64,000 nt of DNA from Maricaulis sp. (GTDB lineage: Bacteria; Pseudomonadota; Alphaproteobacteria; Caulobacterales; Maricaulaceae): assembly GCF_030149235.1 (NCBI RefSeq), contig NZ_JASBRW010000041.1:1-64000 (forward strand), in the 5' to 3' direction. Made by a program: the position numbers and the translations under genes. Numbering within the stretch: position 1 is the stretch's first letter; every line of letters starts with the position of its first letter. A model generated the notes under the pieces. The model saw nothing but the letters and a program-made list of their open reading frames with translations, ran no database searches and was not told the DNA's origin. Shown piece by piece: positions 748 through 18,484 of this stretch.

Positions 748-1209
748 ATGTCACGGCCTTTCTGGAAGATGAAAACTCTCTCTGAGATGAGCAAGGATGA
801 GTGGGAGTCACTGTGCGACGGGTGCGGGAAGTGCTGCCTGGTCAAGCTCGAGGACGAGGATACCGGCCTGCGCCTGGAAACCGACATCGCCTGCAAGCTG
901 TTTGATGGCGAGACCTGCCGCTGCAAGGATTACACGAACCGCAAGGCCAAGGTCCCCGACTGTGTCGTGCTGACGCCTGAGAGCGTGCACACCCTGCCCT
1001 GGATCCCGAAAACCTGCGCTTACCGCCTGCTCGCTGAAGGCAAGGACCTCTATGACTGGCACCCGCTGGTCACCGGCGACCCGATGTCGACCCACAAGGC
1101 CGGCATGTCCGTCATCGGCCAGACCGTCTCCGTACCCGACGAGAAGCTCGACCAGATCGACTGGGAGGAGCACATCGTTGAATGGCCTGGTGAGGGTGAG
1201 GCCGACTAG
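748..1209 (+). CDS. UPF0260 family Cys-rich protein (YcgN-like)
   Basis: A 153-residue protein of the UPF0260/YkgJ-like zinc/iron-chelating cysteine cluster group. The N-terminal pattern PFWxxKTLxEMSxxEWESLC followed by C23-x2-C26-x2-CC30 matches my memory of E. coli YcgN closely, including the later [13 protein letters not shown] segment near 90-102, and supports the start at 748. The biochemical role of the family is not established; metal binding is inferred from the Cys cluster. It stands alone between the penicillin-binding protein (divergent) and the first hairpin repeat. Confidence 0.88.
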
Positions 1210-1220
1210 CTGCCCGTAAT

Positions 1221-1280
1221 AAACGGGGACAGACACATTTAATGATGCAGCCGGGCAGGAAAATGTGTCTGTCCCCGTTT
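1221..1280. repeat. Hairpin repeat copy 1 (GGGACAGACACA family)
   Basis: A perfect 20-bp inverted repeat: the left arm at 1221-1240 contains GGGGACAGACACATTT, the right arm at 1261-1280 is its exact reverse complement, and a 20-nt spacer separates them. Two further copies lie at 1746-1802 and 2376-2425. A run of T after the right arm makes it terminator-like for the gene on its left. The spacer shares a TGATG...CCGG-CAGG pattern with copy 2, so these are homologous elements rather than chance terminators. Confidence 0.85.
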
Positions 1281-1300
1281 TTACTGGGGACTAACAATAG

Positions 1301-1729
1301 TCATCCCAAGCTAAAATGCCGCTCAGGATAACCATCGCAATTTTCGGCTTCGCAAACAATCATCGCGTTGTACCCTTCGCGAAGATCAGCTGACAAATAT
1401 CTTTGGTAAATCACCCAATGTTCAGCCGCCCGGCAAACGAAAAACACCCTAACTATTTCACGTTCACGTATCTCACTCTGCGATTCATCAAGAACGAAAT
1501 CCATTGGTGCACATTCACCTGCGATTTCAAAAGCTTCCTCGCGTGAAATCGAATCTGATTCTGAACTAAAATACATTCGACTTGTTCTCCAGTCCGGAGA
1601 TTGAGAATGTATTGCTTCCAGTTCGTGGCGCGCTTCGTCAATTATTGAGTCAACGGAGAACTCAGCCACTCCGCAAGCACCGAGGCTCAATGCGATGATG
1701 AACACCAGCTTTATTGATAAGTTCCGCAA
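1301..1729 (-). CDS. Small lipoprotein of unknown function
   Basis: I chose a TTG start at 1729, because GGAGGGGG lies just upstream and the product then begins with a short basic region and a hydrophobic stretch ending in the lipobox LGAC (Cys at residue 19). An upstream in-frame ATG at 1762 would place the start inside hairpin repeat 2 and spoil the signal. The mature 124-residue protein is acidic, with three further Cys and no domain I recognise. Its base composition is visibly more A+T-rich than the flanking core genes, which suggests recent acquisition. It sits exactly between repeat copies 1 and 2. Confidence 0.6.
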   Translation of the reverse strand: MRNLSIKLVFIIALSLGACGVAEFSVDSIIDEARHELEAIHSQSPDWRTSRMYFSSESDSISREEAFEIAGECAPMDFVLDESQSEIREREIVRVFFVCRAAEHWVIYQRYLSADLREGYNAMIVCEAENCDGYPERHFSLG

Positions 1730-1745
1730 AACACCCCCTCCGAAT

Positions 1746-1802
1746 AACTGGGACAGACGCATTTATTGATGTCACCGGACAGGAAATGTGTCTGTCCCAG
1801 TT
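1746..1802. repeat. Hairpin repeat copy 2 (GGGACAGACACA family)
   Basis: Arms at 1746-1764 and 1784-1802 are 19-bp inverted repeats with one mismatch (G at 1759 in GACGCATTT versus GTGT in the right arm). A T tract follows at 1801-1806. The 19-nt spacer resembles that of copy 1. A short extra GTTCCCGTTTAT sequence at about 1810-1821 may be a worn half-copy. Confidence 0.82.
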
Positions 1803-1838
1803 TTTTCGTGTTCCCGTTTATTCAAGCGCGGCGACGGA

Positions 1839-2312
1839 TCATTTTCTGGATGGGAAGTCCCAGTGCTCGCTGAGCATCTCTTGATGGCGCCGAAGAATTG
1901 GGGAGCTTTCACCCCGCCTGTGGTGAGAGAGCCGCTCCTCGATCTGCTTCTTGGACCAAATTGCAGCCACTTCAAGACCTATGCAATCTTCCTTTGAAGC
2001 GGGTGCGGTACCGAAGTCATCGTGAAGGACATAATCTTTGCTTATCATATCTCGTGAGAAAAACAGTCTCTCTCGAAGATCATCTTCGGTAAGCGCGGTA
2101 GTGCCAATTTTTTTCCAGGCCTTGGAATTCACAGCTTCGTCCATGACCCACACGGAAAAGGCAGTCTTGGCGCTTGTAACGTCTGCAAGAGGCACGCGCT
2201 CAGCAGTGATACAATCGTAAAATGCAACAAGCGGGGACTTGAGTATTTTCGCATAGGCAAATCCCCCGTCCGGTAGAGAAAACTCCACGACATCGCCGGT
2301 CTTTTTTCGCAT
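1839..2312 (-). CDS. Imm26-like polymorphic-toxin immunity protein, orphan
   Basis: A 157-residue soluble protein beginning RKKTGDVVEFSLPDGGFAYA, which is the N-terminal signature I associate with Immunity protein 26 (a first beta-strand carrying GDV-x-P-L-xDG-x-YGY/AYA). The middle has the family-like W-x-x-IG pattern (AWKKIGTTAL near 65-74) and a later IGLEVAAIW strand. Imm26 proteins neutralise toxin domains of contact-dependent or secreted polymorphic toxins; no toxin gene is present here. It is enclosed by repeats 2 and 3 and is more A+T-rich than its surroundings. A GAGAGGG sequence precedes the ATG at 2312. Confidence 0.65.
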   Translation of the reverse strand: MRKKTGDVVEFSLPDGGFAYAKILKSPLVAFYDCITAERVPLADVTSAKTAFSVWVMDEAVNSKAWKKIGTTALTEDDLRERLFFSRDMISKDYVLHDDFGTAPASKEDCIGLEVAAIWSKKQIEERLSHHRRGESSPILRRHQEMLSEHWDFPSRK

Positions 2313-2375
2313 CTACACGCCCTCTCGAGGCAAGCTAAACCCTAGTTTCTATCGTCCAGTCGAGTTGTCCCGATA

Positions 2376-2425
2376 AACCAGGACAGACACATTTTCCGGA
2401 TTAATTGTGTCTGTCCCAGTTTTTA
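2376..2425. repeat. Hairpin repeat copy 3 (GGGACAGACACA family)
   Basis: The left arm AAACCAGGACAGACACA (2376-2392) pairs with the right arm TGTGTCTGTCCCAGTTT (2407-2423), with two mismatches in the distal stem. The spacer is shorter and unlike that of copies 1 and 2. It closes the islet just ahead of the GTA remnant. Confidence 0.75.
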
Positions 2426-2575: not shown

Positions 2576-3067
2576 ATGGTGAGCTCGGCGCAGTGGGATG
2601 ATTATGTGCTGCAAAGCATTGAGGGCAAAACCTCGGCTGAGGCGATTGCCGCCGAGACCGGGCGGGAGCTGGACTATGTCCAGCGCCGTCTCCGCGAGGG
2701 GCTGCGTGCGGCCGAGTGGAGCCTGGCGCAGGATATGTCCGTCTCCCTGAGGCGCCAGCTTATCCTGGCCCGGGCCGCCATGGATAAAGGCCAGGGCAAG
2801 ACAGCCGATGCGCTCTTGCGCCGCATAACTTTGGCGGCGAAAGCCGCGCGCGATCTGGAGGGATTAGTGGCTCTAAATGGCAGGAAGACTAACGCGGTCG
2901 AGGCGGGCCGGATGCAAGTCGTCGGAGATGCTGGCGATCCCGCCGCTGAACTCATCGCTCGCCTTGATCGCCTCGCTGCCGCGCAAGACCAGAAATCGCT
3001 GGGTGCGAGCCCAGTCGACCGCGCAGCAGATCCGGCTGCTCTACGACTGGAGCGAGCAGAGGAGTGA
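2576..3067 (+). CDS. GTA small-terminase-like protein
   Basis: A 163-residue protein directly before the GTA terminase fragment. An N-terminal helix-turn-helix-like stretch (SAEAIAAETGRELDYVQRRL, about 17-36) is followed by long charged helices, fitting a small terminase or terminase-associated protein. I prefer the ATG at 2576 to one at 2507, because the extra residues look non-coding. Its end overlaps the terminase reading frame by about 140 nt, more than usual for this cluster. The family assignment is from position and fold pattern only. Function is doubtful because the rest of the particle genes are gone. Confidence 0.5.
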   Translation: MVSSAQWDDYVLQSIEGKTSAEAIAAETGRELDYVQRRLREGLRAAEWSLAQDMSVSLRRQLILARAAMDKGQGKTADALLRRITLAAKAARDLEGLVALNGRKTNAVEAGRMQVVGDAGDPAAELIARLDRLAAAQDQKSLGASPVDRAADPAALRLERAEE

Positions 3068-3515
3068 CGCCCAGAAACCGCCCGCTGGCGACTGGCTGAT
3101 CTGGCTCTTCCTGGGCGGGCGCGGGGCGGGCAAGACCCGCGCCGGCGCGGAATGGGTCCGCGCCCAGGTCAAGGCCGGTCGCCGCCGTGTGGCGCTTGTC
3201 GGGCCGGCCTTTGCGGATACGCGCGAGGTGATGATTGATGGCGAGTCGGGTTTGCTGGGTGTCGGGCCGCCGGACGAGCGCCCGCGCTATGAGGTCAGCC
3301 GCCGCCGCCTGGTCTGGCCTAACGGGGCTGTCGCCCAGGCGTTTTCCGCGGAAGACCCGGACAGTCTGCGCGGGCCGCAGTTTGAAATCGCCTGGTGTGA
3401 CGGATCGGGCTGCCGGCGGCGGACAAGGGCGCCAATCAGCCCAATGTCTTCTTCGATCCGAAAAGCACCGAGAGTGCCTTGCCGCATTTTTCCAGCGGTG
3501 AGCGCGATGACCTGA
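2928..3515 (+). pseudogene. GTA terminase large subunit, truncated at Walker B
   Basis: N-terminal part of the phage/GTA DNA-packaging ATPase. From the start at 2928, residues 33-60 match the family (LLYDWS, GDWLIWLFL), Walker A is GGRGAGKT at 63-70, and SLRGPQF at 146-152 leads to the Walker B strand EIAWCD at 153-158. Just there, where the catalytic Glu and the rest of the ATPase and nuclease domain should follow, the sequence changes to gp15 coding sequence in another frame, and this frame runs on without meaning to a stop at 3515. About two thirds of the protein is missing, so it cannot package DNA. Confidence 0.85.
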
Positions 3516-5305
3516 TCCAGCGCCGGGGCCTGGAGGCCTTGCTGTCGCATTGGTCGCAAAGCGGCGCGCATAATCCGCTCTCCTCGCTTTATGACGGGCC
3601 GATGGTGGAAGCTGATTGGGTGCATGTCTTGGCCTTTGATGCACGGCCCTGGCCGGACTTCCCGGCTCGGCAAACCGTGTGGGCTGATGGCGGAAACTGG
3701 CGCCTGGGCCATTGGCTCAATGGTCGAGCCGGTCTGGTGCCGGTGGCTCGGATCGTCAGCGACATCGCCGGACAATGCGAGGTGAGCGCGCTGGATGTCG
3801 AGGCGCTGGATGATCTCGTCTCGGGCTATGTGCTGGCCCAGGCCGGGACCGGTCGCGACGCGCTGGCGCCGCTGGTCAATCTGTTAGGCCTGTCAGTCAT
3901 CGAGGGGCCGCAGGGCCTGGTGGTGCGGTCCGCGGGCCGTTTTGACGGGTCGTTTCAAATCCATGATCGGCAGGCCGGCGATGCCGGAGATTTTCAGGTG
4001 CATTACCCCGCTGCAGAGGATCAAAGCCGCGATACCCGTCTCTATCATCTCGATGACAGTGCGGATTACGCGCCCGCGGTGGCCAGCGCGCGCCAGGCCG
4101 TCGGCGCGTCGGGCGTTGATATCATTTCTGCCCCGGTGCTGGCGGACCCCTCCCTGGCCCAGCGCTGGGCCGAGCAGCATTTTGCCCGCCAGCGCTCGTC
4201 CGGCGGATCGGTCATCATCACGCTGCCGCCGTCCGCCCTGGCCCTGATGCCGGGCGACAAGGTCGGGTTTGCGGGACAGGATTATCGCATTGAGGCCCTG
4301 CAGGGCGGGACAGAGCGGCAGGCCCACCTCGTGCCTTGGCAGGCGGAGACACCGAGGCTGGCTGGTAGTGAAGCCGGCACCGCCACCGGCCCCCTGATGC
4401 CGCCGGCGCGACCGGTTCTGCTCCTGCTCAATCGCCATCCGGACGGGCTGCTGGCTGCTGTCCATGGCCGTCCCTGGTCGGCGCCGGTCGAGCTGGCAGT
4501 CTCAACTGACGGGGCGGTTTTCGAGGCTCGTGGCCAGTGCGACCAGCGGGCTATCATGGGTGAGCTGCTCACCGATCTGGCGCCGGGCCCTGTGGGCTAT
4601 TGGGATGAGGCGGGCTCGCTGGAGGTCTGTGTGTATGAGGGCCGGCTTGAAAGCCGGGCCCGGCGAGATGTGTTCGCCGGCAAGAATCGCCTGGCTATCG
4701 AGCAGGCGGGCGGCGAGTGGGAGGTGATGGATTTCGCCCGGGCCGAGCTGGTGGCCGAGCAGTGTTACCGGTTGAGCGGGTTATTGCGCGGGCAGGCCGG
4801 CTCGGTCGCCGCGGGCGCCAAGGTGGGCGCGCGCCTTGTGCTCCTCGACGGGGCCTTGGCAACGCTGTCCCTGGCCGCACACGAAACCGGTATTGACCTG
4901 AGTGTGCGGGCCTGGCCGGCGGCGAGCAGCGTGCAAAACGCGGCGATCGAGCCGGTTGTCTCCCGTCGCCGGGGTGCGCGATGTCATGCGCCCGTGCATT
5001 TGCGTCTCTCCCGGTCCGCCGATGAGGTGCGGGCCCGCTGGATCCGGTGCACGCGGATCGGGGGCGATCACTGGGGCGTAGAAGACGTGCCCCTGGGCGA
5101 GGCGGAAGAGCTCTATGAGGTCCGTGTTTCGCGATCGCAGGGCGAGGTGCTGCGCCAGCGGGTGACGACCCCGGCCTGGCAGTCGGATGTGAGCACACTG
5201 ACAGCCCTGGCGGGCGGGGCGGGCACGGTCTTGACGATCCATGTTGCGCAGATCTCCCGTGACAGCGGAGCCGGGCTGAGCGCGCGCGCTGACATCACGC
5301 TGTGA
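3401..5305 (+). pseudogene. GTA gp15-like tail/host-specificity protein, C-terminal half
   Basis: The open frame beginning at 3401 reads GLPAADKGANQPNVFFDP and then SALPHFSSGERDDLIQRR, which I recognise as the end of the TIM-barrel domain of GTA gp15, followed by the phage-tail_3 region and the C-terminal domains to a stop at 5305 (634 codons; full-length gp15 proteins are about twice that). There is no proper start: the frame is closed by TGA at 3398-3400, and only a chance TTG at 3479 could initiate. In intact clusters gp15 is the last gene, about 12 kb after the terminase, so a single deletion has removed portal, protease, capsid, tail and tape-measure genes. The remaining frame has not collected stops, so the loss may be recent or the frame may still be used. 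Confidence 0.85.
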
Positions 5306-5374: not shown

Positions 5375-6307
5375 ATGGAAGACCCTTACAAGACGCTTGG
5401 CGTGAGCAAATCCGCCTCCCAGGATGAAATCCGCAAGGCCTATCGCAAGCTGGCCAAGGCGCTGCATCCGGATGCCAATCCGGGCGACAAGGCTGCTGAA
5501 GAGAAATTCAAACAGGTCTCTGCCGCCTTCAACCTGCTGTCCGATCCGGACAAGCGGGCCGATTATGACACCGCAGCGCGTGCCGGTTTCGGATCGCAAT
5601 ACCAGCCGGGCATGGGCGCGGGCATGGGCGGTGCCGGTATGGGCGGTCAGCGCGGACCTTTCAATTTCCGCCAGACCCGTACCGGCGGCGGCCGCGGGTT
5701 CGAGGATATCTTCTCCGACCTGTTCACCGATTTTGGGGGCGGGGCCGGGCAGCAGCAACAACAGCAGCAGCGGTCCAAGGGCGAGGATGTGCGACAGAGC
5801 CTCAAGCTCGATTTCATGCAGGCGGCCCAGGGTGGCAAGCACCGGGTGGTCCTGCCCGGCGGCCGCTCTGTCGATGTCGCCGTGCCGGCCGGTGCGGCGG
5901 AAGGCCAGGTGCTGCGCCTGCGCGGCCAGGGGCATCCCTCGCGCGTTGGTGGTCAGCCCGGTGATGTGCTGATCGAGATTACCGTCGCTGAACACAAATT
6001 CTTCTCTCGCGATGGCCAGGATGTGCGCCTCGATCTGCCAATCACGCTCAAGGAGGCGGCCCTTGGTGCCAAGGTCCGTGTCCCCACGATTGACGGCATG
6101 GTCGATGTCCGCGTGCCCGCCGGTGCATCCAGCGGCGGTCTTCTGCGGCTGCGTGGCAAGGGATTTGCGGGAAGCGGGGGCAAGCGCGGCGATCAGATCA
6201 TCCGTTTGATGGTGGCGCTGCCTGAGCGGGACGAGGCCTTGCAGGAATTCCTGCAGACCTGGTCACCGCCGAGTGGTTATAATCCGCGCAAGGGCTTGCA
6301 GTCCTGA
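5375..6307 (+). CDS. DnaJ-family co-chaperone without zinc finger (CbpA/DnaJ type II)
   Basis: A 310-residue J-domain protein. Residues 1-65 form the J-domain with the HPD motif (HPDANPGDK near 32-40) that triggers DnaK ATP hydrolysis. A Gly/Phe-rich region follows, with a run of Gln near 127-133 (CAG-rich), and then the two beta-rich substrate-binding domains (QSLKLDFMQAAQGG..., LPITLKEAALGAKV...). The four CxxCxGxG zinc motifs of true DnaJ are absent, so it is a type II protein. It follows the GTA remnant by 70 bp but belongs to the core genome. ATG at 5375 is the natural start because MEDPYKTLGV is the usual N-terminus. Confidence 0.93.
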   Translation: MEDPYKTLGVSKSASQDEIRKAYRKLAKALHPDANPGDKAAEEKFKQVSAAFNLLSDPDKRADYDTAARAGFGSQYQPGMGAGMGGAGMGGQRGPFNFRQTRTGGGRGFEDIFSDLFTDFGGGAGQQQQQQQRSKGEDVRQSLKLDFMQAAQGGKHRVVLPGGRSVDVAVPAGAAEGQVLRLRGQGHPSRVGGQPGDVLIEITVAEHKFFSRDGQDVRLDLPITLKEAALGAKVRVPTIDGMVDVRVPAGASSGGLLRLRGKGFAGSGGKRGDQIIRLMVALPERDEALQEFLQTWSPPSGYNPRKGLQS

Positions 6308-6722: not shown

Positions 6723-7400
6723 ATGCGCGCACTTATTGTCGAAGACGATTCGGATCTGAGCCGCCAGCTTGGCCGTGCCCTGGAAGACTCCGGCTATGCC
6801 GTGGATGTCGCCCTGGACGGTGAGGATGGTCATTTTCTCGGTGATACCGAGCCGTATGACGTCGTCGTGCTCGATCTCGGCTTGCCCAAGCTTGACGGTG
6901 TGACCGTGCTGGAGCGCTGGCGCTCGGACGGACGCGATTTCCCGGTACTGATTCTGACGGCGCGGGATCGCTGGTCGGAAAAGGTCGCAGGCTTTGATGC
7001 CGGCGCTGATGATTATCTGACCAAGCCGTTCCATACCGAGGAATTGCTGGCGCGACTGCGGGCCCTGACCCGCCGCGCCGCCGGTCACTCCTCCTCGACG
7101 ATCGAGTGCGGGGGCCTGAGCATCGATACGCGCGGTGCCCGCGTCTTCATCGAGGGTGCACCGGTCAAGGTGACGTCGCACGAGTTTCGCATGCTCAGCT
7201 ACCTCGCCCACCACCAGGACCGGGTGATTTCGCGGACCGAGCTGGTCGAGCATATCTACGATCAGGACTTCGACCGCGACAGCAATACGATCGAGGTCTT
7301 TGTCGGGCGTTTGCGCAAGAAGATCGGGTCTGACCGGATCGAGACCGTGCGCGGGCTCGGCTACCGGCTGGTCGATCCGGTGGCACGACCGGTTTCGTGA
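6723..7400 (+). CDS. OmpR/PhoP-family response regulator
   Basis: A 225-residue two-component regulator. The receiver (1-115) has the acidic pair ED8D9, phospho-acceptor Asp51 (VVVLDLGLP), and KPF with the conserved Lys near 102. The winged-helix output domain (about 130-220) ends with the typical TIEVFVGRLRKKIG and RGLGYRLV signatures. It is preceded by a PepSY protein and its stop overlaps the kinase start (GTGA), so it is one operon. The order PepSY-regulator-kinase resembles FeuPQ/PhoPQ-like systems of alphaproteobacteria; the signal is not deducible here. Confidence 0.93.
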   Translation: MRALIVEDDSDLSRQLGRALEDSGYAVDVALDGEDGHFLGDTEPYDVVVLDLGLPKLDGVTVLERWRSDGRDFPVLILTARDRWSEKVAGFDAGADDYLTKPFHTEELLARLRALTRRAAGHSSSTIECGGLSIDTRGARVFIEGAPVKVTSHEFRMLSYLAHHQDRVISRTELVEHIYDQDFDRDSNTIEVFVGRLRKKIGSDRIETVRGLGYRLVDPVARPVS

Positions 7401-16399: not shown

Positions 16400-18484
16400 C
16401 TAGCGCTGGATGCTGAGGCGCAGGCCGATCGAGCGGCCCGAGCCGGGCAGGCGCTCGCCCAGACCGACTACAGAGGCGGCATTGCGGTTATAGCCCGCCA
16501 GATGCTGCTCATAGTCCTCGTCCAGCAGATTTTCCGCGCTCAGTGCCAGCGTAATGCCGTCGCCGATTGCCCAGCCGGCATAGGCATTGGCGATGGCATA
16601 GCCATCCGTGGCCTGCTCGGAATTGGAGGCCGAGATGCGATCCTGCTCGCCGACCATCAGACCTTCCAGCGTGGCGTACCAGTCGCCGGTCTCGTAAGTG
16701 GCTCCCAGGCGCAGGGAGGGCGGGGCGATGCGATAGAGATTGTCGTCGATATCGCGGCGCTCGCCGCGGACCCAGCTGACCACACCATCAAGGTGCCAGT
16801 GATCACTCAGGCGATATCCGAAATCGACATCGAGGCCATAGATGCGCGCGTCGACATTGCCGAAACGCAGAGGCGTCGGATCGCCATTCATGCTCGAGAC
16901 CATCTCGACCGGAGAATTGATCACACCCGGCGTATCATCGAAGGGTACACCCTGGATGTAATTGTCGATCTCGCGCCAGTACACGGTGGGGCGGGCATAG
17001 GCGCGGTCATGCTGCCAATCGAAACCGGCTTCCGCGATCCAGGCGGTTTCCGGGACCAGGTCGCGATCACCGACATAGGTATTGCCGTCGGCCAGACCGC
17101 CCGAGGCCGGGGTCGGCAGCCAGGCGAAACGCTCGACATAGCCCGGGACACGGGATTTGTGGGCGAGGGCAAAGCGTGCGGTGAGTGTGTCCGACAGCTC
17201 GCGCCAGAAGCGGCCGGCGGCGTCGATCGTGCCGTCACTCCAATTGCGGTCGCTGTTATTATAGCCCGTGGCGAGCATGGACGGGCCCATCGGAACCGCC
17301 GTTCCGGTACTGGCCGGTGCGCCCATGGCGTCGTGGGAATCGATCCGGATCCCCATCTCCGAAGACCAGCCGAGCGGGCCTTGGCCCGTCCACTCGACGA
17401 AGACACCGGTGCGCTTGACGTCGATGTCGGCGAAGCTGTTGAGGAAGAAATCGGGATTGTTCGGGTTGGTGATGGTCACATCGTGATCCGAGCGCGACCG
17501 GTCCGCACCGAGGGTCAGGCGGCCGCCCATGGCGTCCATCTCGACCTCGGCGCCCAGGCTGCGGCTGGTGGCATAGGCGAAGGTTTCGCGCTGGCGCATG
17601 GCCGGTGGTGCCGGGCGCAGGTGGAAATTCGTCATCGCATGGTCGACATCGCTGTAGCCCGCATGCAGCCGCACCTCGGTGTCTCCGAGATCAAGCGTGT
17701 AGGCGAGGCGGGCGATATCCGTGTCGAAAAAGCGGATATCCATGGCGAAGGGCGGATTGCCGGTTTCCCCGGTTTCACTGCGGCGCAGATCGAGGGAAAT
17801 CTCGTGCGCACCGGAGCGCCAGCCAGCACCGACACCATAGACAAGGCGATTATGCTCGGTCCCGACCAGCGTCCCGCGCGGCGTCTCCACATCGCCGCCA
17901 TTCTCGATCGAATAGAGGGCATGGACGCGCCAGTTTTCATTGGCGATGGCGGTCAGGCCGCCAGCGGAATAGCTTTCATCGACCGAGCGCGCGCCCAGGC
18001 TCCAGTCGAGCTCCGACACAAAGTCTGCGCTGTCACCGAACTCGGAGCGTTTCAGCACCGCATTGAGACCGCCGCCCAGGCCCGGTCCGGCGCTGACCGG
18101 CGACAGGCCGCGATCCAGTTCGAAGCGTTCGACCAGGGGCAGGGGGGCATAGTGCAGCGGCGGGTCCATCAGATTGGGACCGCCCGAGGCAAAGGCATGC
18201 CCGTCGATGCGGATATTGATCCGCGAGCCGAACATGCCGCGATACTGAAGCTGTCCCGACAGGGCGCCATTGCCGATAGCTGCGGCACCGGGCAGGCGCG
18301 CGATCAGGGCTGCCGGATCCGGACCGGCATTGGGCGGTAGGGTCTCCGGCGACAACACCTCAGTCGTGTCATGCACGGTGGTGTGGGAATGGATGGTGAT
18401 GATGTCGACCAGCGGGTGGTCGGCCGCAGCCGGGGCTGCAAACAGGGCGAGGGCGCTCGTGGATACGAGGAAATGGCGGGTCAT
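16400..18484 (-). CDS. TonB-dependent outer-membrane receptor, probably for copper
   Basis: A 694-residue TonB-dependent receptor. A signal peptide (about 1-22) is followed by a plug domain (PDPAALIARLPGAAAIGNGALSGQLQYRG...) and a 22-strand-type barrel ending ...IGLRLSIQR. In the plug, RGMFGSRINIRIDG and the Gly-rich PGLGGGLNAV segment are family landmarks. The His/Asp-rich mature N-terminus (DHPLVDIITIHSHTTVHD) and the DUF2946 gene just upstream are typical of OprC/NosA-like copper receptors, so copper is the likely substrate (inference). Gap to DUF2946: 92 bp, same strand. Confidence 0.9.
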   Translation of the reverse strand: MTRHFLVSTSALALFAAPAAADHPLVDIITIHSHTTVHDTTEVLSPETLPPNAGPDPAALIARLPGAAAIGNGALSGQLQYRGMFGSRINIRIDGHAFASGGPNLMDPPLHYAPLPLVERFELDRGLSPVSAGPGLGGGLNAVLKRSEFGDSADFVSELDWSLGARSVDESYSAGGLTAIANENWRVHALYSIENGGDVETPRGTLVGTEHNRLVYGVGAGWRSGAHEISLDLRRSETGETGNPPFAMDIRFFDTDIARLAYTLDLGDTEVRLHAGYSDVDHAMTNFHLRPAPPAMRQRETFAYATSRSLGAEVEMDAMGGRLTLGADRSRSDHDVTITNPNNPDFFLNSFADIDVKRTGVFVEWTGQGPLGWSSEMGIRIDSHDAMGAPASTGTAVPMGPSMLATGYNNSDRNWSDGTIDAAGRFWRELSDTLTARFALAHKSRVPGYVERFAWLPTPASGGLADGNTYVGDRDLVPETAWIAEAGFDWQHDRAYARPTVYWREIDNYIQGVPFDDTPGVINSPVEMVSSMNGDPTPLRFGNVDARIYGLDVDFGYRLSDHWHLDGVVSWVRGERRDIDDNLYRIAPPSLRLGATYETGDWYATLEGLMVGEQDRISASNSEQATDGYAIANAYAGWAIGDGITLALSAENLLDEDYEQHLAGYNRNAASVVGLGERLPGSGRSIGLRLSIQR

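What the first reader, a model, noticed from the sequence alone, without database searches (positions are those of the whole stretch)
2928..5305. Collapsed gene transfer agent: terminase joined to gp15
The sequence passes from the TerL Walker B strand (...EIAWCD) to the gp15 TIM-barrel end (GLPAADKGANQPN...) at about 3401-3410, and the frame changes. A single deletion therefore removed about 12 kb of head and tail genes. The left and right ends of the cluster remain, including a small-terminase-like gene. Such a scar dates GTA loss in this lineage and shows that the host can do without it.
Basis: partly seen in the sequence, partly recalled or inferred. Interest (0 to 1): 0.72.

Follow-up and report, generated by a model that had tools for sequence, protein, structure and literature searches.

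The report
Repeatedly collapsed gene transfer agent
A bacterium has lost the middle of its gene-transfer-agent gene cluster by one deletion, and the same two points of the cluster turn out to have been joined, often to the same codon, again and again in many other alphaproteobacteria for a reason that is not yet known.

Summary
At 3402/3404 the first two-fifths of an RcGTA-like large terminase (TerL, cut at its Walker B Asp-Glu) is joined out of frame to the C-terminal half of gp15. Both flanks are collinear with an intact cluster in the nearest relative found; about 10.1 kb is missing.

This is not a private scar. The same TerL Glu codon joined in frame to the same gp15 Glu codon was found in 11 of 218 genomes of another family. 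A junction-specific pattern found 66 places in the genome collection; 65 of 66 have TerL right before the join. On a gp15 tree the fused state changes 40 times, at least 31 on supported branches. Four fused records have an unfused relative at 92-99.9% DNA identity, so those fusions look young. In the one case resolved to the base the overlap is 2 bp, local similarity is ordinary, and neither site shows synonymous constraint. Microhomology, shared descent and a spreading allele are disfavoured as general causes. A fixed break point or selection on the chimera remain open.

The parts
748..1209 (+). CxxCxxCC (PF03692) protein, left flank gene of the GTA locus
   Evidence: 91% to the G008 gene left of its intact cluster
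2576..3067 (+). TerS-like gene, kept
   Evidence: no Pfam or PHROG hit; 62.6% over 163 aa to the G008 ORF just before TerL; TerS by position only, inferred
2928..3402 (+). TerL N-terminal remnant (open frame 2877-3515), to Walker B Asp and the first base of the next codon
   Evidence: Terminase_6N E 2.1e-13; 76% to G008 TerL aa 2-179
3395..3412 (+). junction TerL | gp15; the frame changes here
3404..5305 (+). gp15 C-terminal remnant (from aa 656 of 1284), open to its stop
   Evidence: GTA_TIM end, Phage-tail_3, Rcc01698_C; 64% to G008 gp15
5375..6307 (+). DnaJ-like gene, right flank
   Evidence: 90% to G008
6723..7400 (+). response regulator, right flank
   Evidence: 99% to G008

Best explanation
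The window carries a real in-place deletion of about 10 kb of an RcGTA-like cluster. It is one case of a recurrent event that removes the head and tail block between two fixed points: the Walker B Glu codon of TerL and, most often among the joins found, a Glu codon at the end of a TIM-barrel strand of gp15 (strand assignment inferred). Shown: the join, collinearity, recurrence to the codon, many changes of state on trees, a close unfused relative in four cases, ordinary local similarity in the one resolved case. Inferred: the TerL point breaks (or is selected) as such and is rejoined to a gp15 point with little or no homology, usually in frame, sometimes not, as in the window. What makes the TerL point special is not known.
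For: Join and flanks. Same codon pair in 11 of 218 genomes of another family, all 11 in frame. Pattern scan: 66 places, 65 of 66 with TerL before the join; 40 full ORFs, 4 broken, 22 cut by the end of the sequence held. Independence: 40 changes of state, at least 31 on supported branches, in 185 rows; in two groups of rows the residue after the Glu is that of the own intact relatives (Tyr in G596 and G878, Met in G893 and two intact relatives). Youth: Ruegeria sp. HKCCD7303 equals an intact contig at 99.87% and 99.85% on the two sides with a 2-bp overlap; Roseovarius pacificus, Devosia marina and Thioclava sediminum have unfused relatives at 96.7, 98.7 and 92.0% on the gp15 side. Frame is not required: the window, G022 and G032 are out of frame, with the shift at the join and both halves otherwise open. 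TerL ends at about aa 178-186 in 12 of 18 truncations that I could class by eye in the order sample, and at that same codon or one or two before it in 12 of 18 in the Rhodobacteraceae sample; decayed and contig-end fragments were not classed.
Against: No enzyme, motif or intermediate was found. Synonymous codons vary freely at both sites, which speaks against a DNA-reading enzyme. A reciprocal-junction pattern gave 2 hits in viral contigs, neither with GTA matches. In the largest tree the fused state is clustered more than chance (40 changes; shuffled mean about 51, 0 of 500 shuffles as low), so some fusions may be shared by descent. 'Intact' for the viral contigs rows of that tree means that gp15 runs on upstream; TerL was checked for the Ruegeria contig only. 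The right-hand partner differs in the window's order (gp15 about 541, 656, 674, 1009, 1047). In joins at gp15 541 the break is ambiguous by 4-5 nt. One left side only (Ruegeria) is resolved to the base; other left parents are 79-90% relatives. Trees are quick searches with SH-aLRT support alone.
Confidence: 0.7

Rival explanations
1. Convergent selection: deletions arise anywhere, but the in-frame TerL-N::gp15-C chimera (about 780-900 aa) is useful and is what survives.
For: 11 in-frame joins and no out-of-frame join at that codon in the Rhodobacteraceae sample; 40 full ORFs against 4 broken among the 44 not cut; low dN/dS between fused congeners, about 0.04-0.18 in the finite Ruegeria, Thioclava and Roseicyclus comparisons and up to 0.39 in the other pairs listed; domains kept; no DNA motif; some clustering of the fused state.
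Against: Close unfused relatives show that fusions can be young and unfused rows nest among fused Ruegeria, so dN/dS may mostly measure the time before fusion. Codon-exactness is more than a protein should need. The window, G022 and G032 are out of frame at the join. No function is evident.
Confidence: 0.2
2. Plain microhomology deletion between similar codon runs (W-x-D-E in TerL, W-x-T-E or L-W-x-D in gp15).
For: By mean in-phase 18-nt identity the gp15-541 partner ranks 9, 61 and 37 in three families and the 656 partner 314 in Rhodobacteraceae, among about half a million codon pairs.
Against: The 656 pair ranks only 17028 in the window's family and 34249 in the Parvularcula family, which also used it. 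In the resolved Ruegeria case the overlap is 2 bp and 3-19% of all position pairs are as similar. No 541 fusion was seen outside the order in the one class sample searched for it (381 genomes).
Confidence: 0.05
3. One ancient fusion allele inherited or spread by transfer.
For: Identical codon join in several orders; some clustering on the largest tree.
Against: Fused rows are scattered among intact ones; in the resolved case the sequence up to the join on both sides is that of the own species.
Confidence: 0.03
4. Assembly artefact in the window.
For: The own genome is fragmented (87 contigs) and 90% complete.
Against: No repeat at the join that could collapse; TerL Walker B joins also lie in single-contig genomes, G596 and G032; the missing part of TerL was not found elsewhere in the fused assemblies searched with full-length TerL.
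Confidence: 0.05

Closest known systems
RcGTA-like gene transfer agent cluster (alphaproteobacterial type I GTA)
   Same: gene order, TerL, gp15 with GTA_TIM and Rcc01698_C domains, fixed host locus
   Different: portal to gp15 N-terminus missing; not expected to make particles
Incomplete RcGTA-like clusters (a genome screen cited in PMC9662315, passages seen, says RcGTA-like regions are often annotated as intact or incomplete prophages)
   Same: partial cluster left in the genome
   Different: here the ends are the same codons in many lineages; not mentioned in the passages seen
Programmed excision elements such as nifD or skin (recalled, not from a call)
   Same: about 10 kb removed, two gene parts joined, often in frame
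   Different: no repeat and no circle found, recombinase not searched for; no sign of a programme

Membership tests
RcGTA-like cluster | GTA-type TerL and gp15 at a conserved host locus | tested here: met
   both remnants, flanks collinear with intact G008
RcGTA-like cluster | portal, capsid and tail genes between them | tested here: not met
   absent at the locus; no PF05065 match in own genome
Functional GTA | particles that transfer DNA | not testable with these tools
   genes missing, so not expected
Recurrent TerL::gp15 join (defined here) | join at TerL Walker B Asp-Glu and gp15 Glu near aa 655 | tested here: met
Recurrent TerL::gp15 join (defined here) | single open chimeric frame | tested here: not met
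   frame changes at the join in the window
Programmed excision | recombinase, matching site repeats, excised circle | tested here: inconclusive
   2-bp overlap only in the resolved case, no GTA hit for the reciprocal junction in viral contigs; recombinase not searched

The most novel reading that the evidence does not exclude
Alphaproteobacteria hold an unrecognised process that cuts the GTA cluster out at two fixed codons, TerL Walker B Glu and gp15 strand-end Glu, so that GTA loss is a frequent, directed switch and not random decay.
Probability: 0.35. Interest if true: 0.92.

Novelty: new variant of a known kind. Interest (0 to 1): 0.72.

Why it matters
Why costly GTAs are kept or lost is a long-standing question. 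If the cluster is lost again and again by the same codon-exact join, in strains whose near relatives are unfused, then loss can be counted, timed and provoked. The join is also a ready-made marker (one degenerate pattern) for GTA-negative strains, and warns that the ends of the cluster alone do not prove a GTA.

Tried and rejected
Shared descent or spread of one allele as the general cause: disfavoured by scattered tree positions and by own-species sequence up to the join in the resolved case; clustering in the largest tree leaves room for some shared fusions. Microhomology: computed in three ways and found weak. Purifying selection on the chimera: first suggested by dN/dS, then found inconclusive once close unfused contigs appeared. 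Excised circle: not found. Fused junction among viral contigs: 0. DNA motif: none by synonymous variation. Homing endonuclease beside TerL: I only listed the ORFs between TerL and portal in 7 loci; no family search was run on them, and one looks like a DUF559 nuclease by eye (recalled). Chi-directed repair: idea only. Structure of the chimera: six submissions met a busy machine; nothing was predicted. The first own-genome capsid search used an unsuitable family (PF03864). Literature: five listings held nothing on such a join, judged from titles and abstract starts; two more searches returned no paper; one paper was seen by passages.

Limits of the counts: at most 4 candidates a genome were scored and the list of places is cut; I followed 29 genomes with weak TerL hits and left out at least G333. 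One search's list of places is cut at about E 4e-52; 53 genomes with weaker or odd rows were followed, with four fused ones. A protein query shows an out-of-frame join as two hits, so the absence of out-of-frame joins in that family rests on the TerL open-frame lengths. One search finds exact in-frame joins only. In one search fused rows with under 330 filled columns were dropped (60 of 68 kept). A further tree (146 rows) left 69 rows unclassed and is not used for a count. In one search the rows shown are the best 28 of those that passed length and alignment filters.

Full report
What is in the window. The window is the first 64 kb of contig C84 of a 2.76 Mb, 87-contig genome, 90.3% complete. 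The frame 2877-3515 (probable start 2928) matches the N-terminal part of a GTA-type large terminase and ends its match just after the Walker B Asp; the frame 3479-5305, with homology from 3404, matches the end of the GTA TIM-barrel domain, Phage-tail_3 and Rcc01698_C of gp15. The two parts lie in different frames. Against the nearest relative found, G008, the left part aligns to TerL aa 179 and the right part starts at gp15 aa 656; G008 has the full cluster between the same host genes, CxxCxxCC on the left and DnaJ and a response regulator on the right. A TerS-like ORF before TerL is 62.6% identical to the ORF at the same place in G008. About 10.1 kb is missing by this comparison. No match to the HK97-type capsid family PF05065 and one TerL and one gp15 match were found in the assembly.

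How old. Taking G008 as the intact sister and five outgroups in turn, amino-acid changes assigned to the window against G008 were 2-9 against 5-11 in the TerL part and 46-53 against 27-40 in the gp15 part; three flanking genes, with one or two outgroups, were about even. So TerL shows no consistent loss of constraint and gp15 a modest one. The deletion is probably young, but this is inference.

The same break elsewhere in the order. Of 137 genomes of the family, 112 have a TerL match and 120 a gp15 match. Collapsed loci are frequent and of many shapes: TerL cut near aa 178-183 and followed by gp15 in G022 and G032 (gp15 aa 544) and G034 (in frame, about 674), and by an insertion-sequence-like ORF in G020; TerL cut later or whole and followed by gp15 in G122 and G123; capsid to gp15 in G084 and G109; and others. 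In the order sample TerL matched in 322 of 398 genomes; 29 with weak hits were followed, adding G228 and G236 (join as in the window but in frame), G184 and G296 (gp15 about 541, in frame), G304 (gp15 1009), G441, G315 (an N run follows) and, with TerL cut elsewhere, G221, G223, G331 (not fetched) and G342. By eye, 12 of the 18 truncations that I could class end at about aa 178-186; decayed and contig-end fragments were not classed.

The same join in other orders. A junction protein from G236 searched in 385 genomes of the class matched in 107; one genome, G596, gave one hit over nearly all of it (5-163 of 163). A site-541 junction searched in 381 genomes gave no such hit. In 218 genomes of the family of G596, 198 matched and 11 gave one hit over the whole junction protein (1-190), in 11 genera, all in frame at the same Glu codon. 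Four of the 11 were also searched with a full-length TerL and held only its N-terminal part, so the missing part of TerL does not sit on another contig of theirs. Other TerL breaks in that family were at about aa 67, 155, 183 (joined in frame to TerL aa 367), 192, 291 and 374. A protein query would show an out-of-frame join as two hits; that none was found at this codon rests on TerL open-frame lengths.

The pattern scan. A degenerate pattern written for the fused codons gave 66 places in the genome collection: mostly Rhodobacterales, with Devosia, Mesorhizobium, Chelativorans, Aminobacter, Phyllobacterium and Parvularcula. In 65 of 66 TerL homology runs up to the join; in L292 the sequence ends there. 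40 ORFs are full, 4 broken, 22 cut by the end of the sequence held. Titles name isolates as well as MAGs and uncultured genomes. Two chimeras scanned carry Terminase_6N, the end of GTA_TIM, Phage-tail_3 and Rcc01698_C.

Independence and youth. In three trees fused and intact rows are mixed: 16 changes in 60 rows, 28 in 109 and 40 in 185, with at least 13, 17 and 31 on supported branches. All are quick searches. The first two trees also hold joins at other gp15 points; the fused rows are those with the exact gp15-656 join. In the first tree the label is no more clustered than chance (178 of 500 shuffles as low), in the second slightly (29 of 500) and in the third clearly (0 of 500), so some fusions may be shared by descent or the lineages differ in their tendency; the fused and most of the intact rows of the third also come from different collections. 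Some changes could in principle be regains; loss is the simpler reading. Ruegeria sp. HKCCD7303 (fused) is 99.87% identical to an intact contig up to the join on the TerL side and 99.85% on the gp15 side, with exactly two bases, GA, shared at the join. Roseovarius pacificus, Devosia marina and Thioclava sediminum have unfused relatives at 96.7, 98.7 and 92.0% on the gp15 side, with the aligned stretch starting at the Glu codon or within two bases of it; their TerL side was not seen.

What does not explain it. Mean 18-nt similarity ranks the gp15-656 pair 314th of 505,877 codon pairs in Rhodobacteraceae and 17,028th of 531,249 in the window's family; the 541 pair ranks 9th and 61st. In the Ruegeria case 3-19% of all position pairs are as similar as the actual one, depending on the window. 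Codon choice at both Glu sites is as free as elsewhere (110 and 96 sequences), so no DNA motif is visible. dN/dS between fused congeners is low, but since unfused rows nest among fused ones this may mostly measure time before fusion. No excised circle was found.

Reading. A fixed point in TerL that breaks, or is favoured, and is rejoined to gp15 fits best: the TerL side is the same within a few bases with different gp15 partners and also when the result is out of frame (window, G022, G032). The lack of a DNA motif and the excess of in-frame joins in Rhodobacteraceae keep selection on the chimera alive. I cannot decide between them.

Novelty. RcGTA-like regions annotated as incomplete prophages are reported (PMC9662315, passages). 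Searches of the held library listed no paper that by title or abstract start treats a recurrent TerL-gp15 join; papers outside that library were not searched.

Noticed in passing
window 1218-2424: Three copies of a palindromic GGGACAGACACATTT element (20-22 nt arms) around two small minus-strand genes, one an Imm26 immunity protein; looks like a REP-type repeat (recalled).
   Followed up: partly
L166, L167, L168: GTA-like TerL split between aa 282 and 294 by about 500-570 bp with both halves matching, in genomes of two families; no Rfam match.
   Followed up: partly
L115 about 16894-17517, minus strand: ORF resembling a DUF559 nuclease (by eye, recalled) between TerL and portal in an intact cluster.
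   Followed up: no
L067: G011: TerL cut near aa 196, portal from aa 38, and the first 339 aa of gp15 inverted: a complex rearrangement in the window's genus.
   Followed up: no
L065 about 3800-4160, minus strand: An insertion-sequence-like ORF (by eye, recalled IS3-type) follows TerL at the Walker B site in G020.
   Followed up: no
L269 485-4201: Ruegeria sediminis fusion ORF is 1239 aa from its first start (1310 from stop to stop), open much further upstream than the others.
   Followed up: no
G497:C1:1673170-1673445: The search reports an open frame of 32612 aa around gp15; perhaps masked sequence.
   Followed up: no
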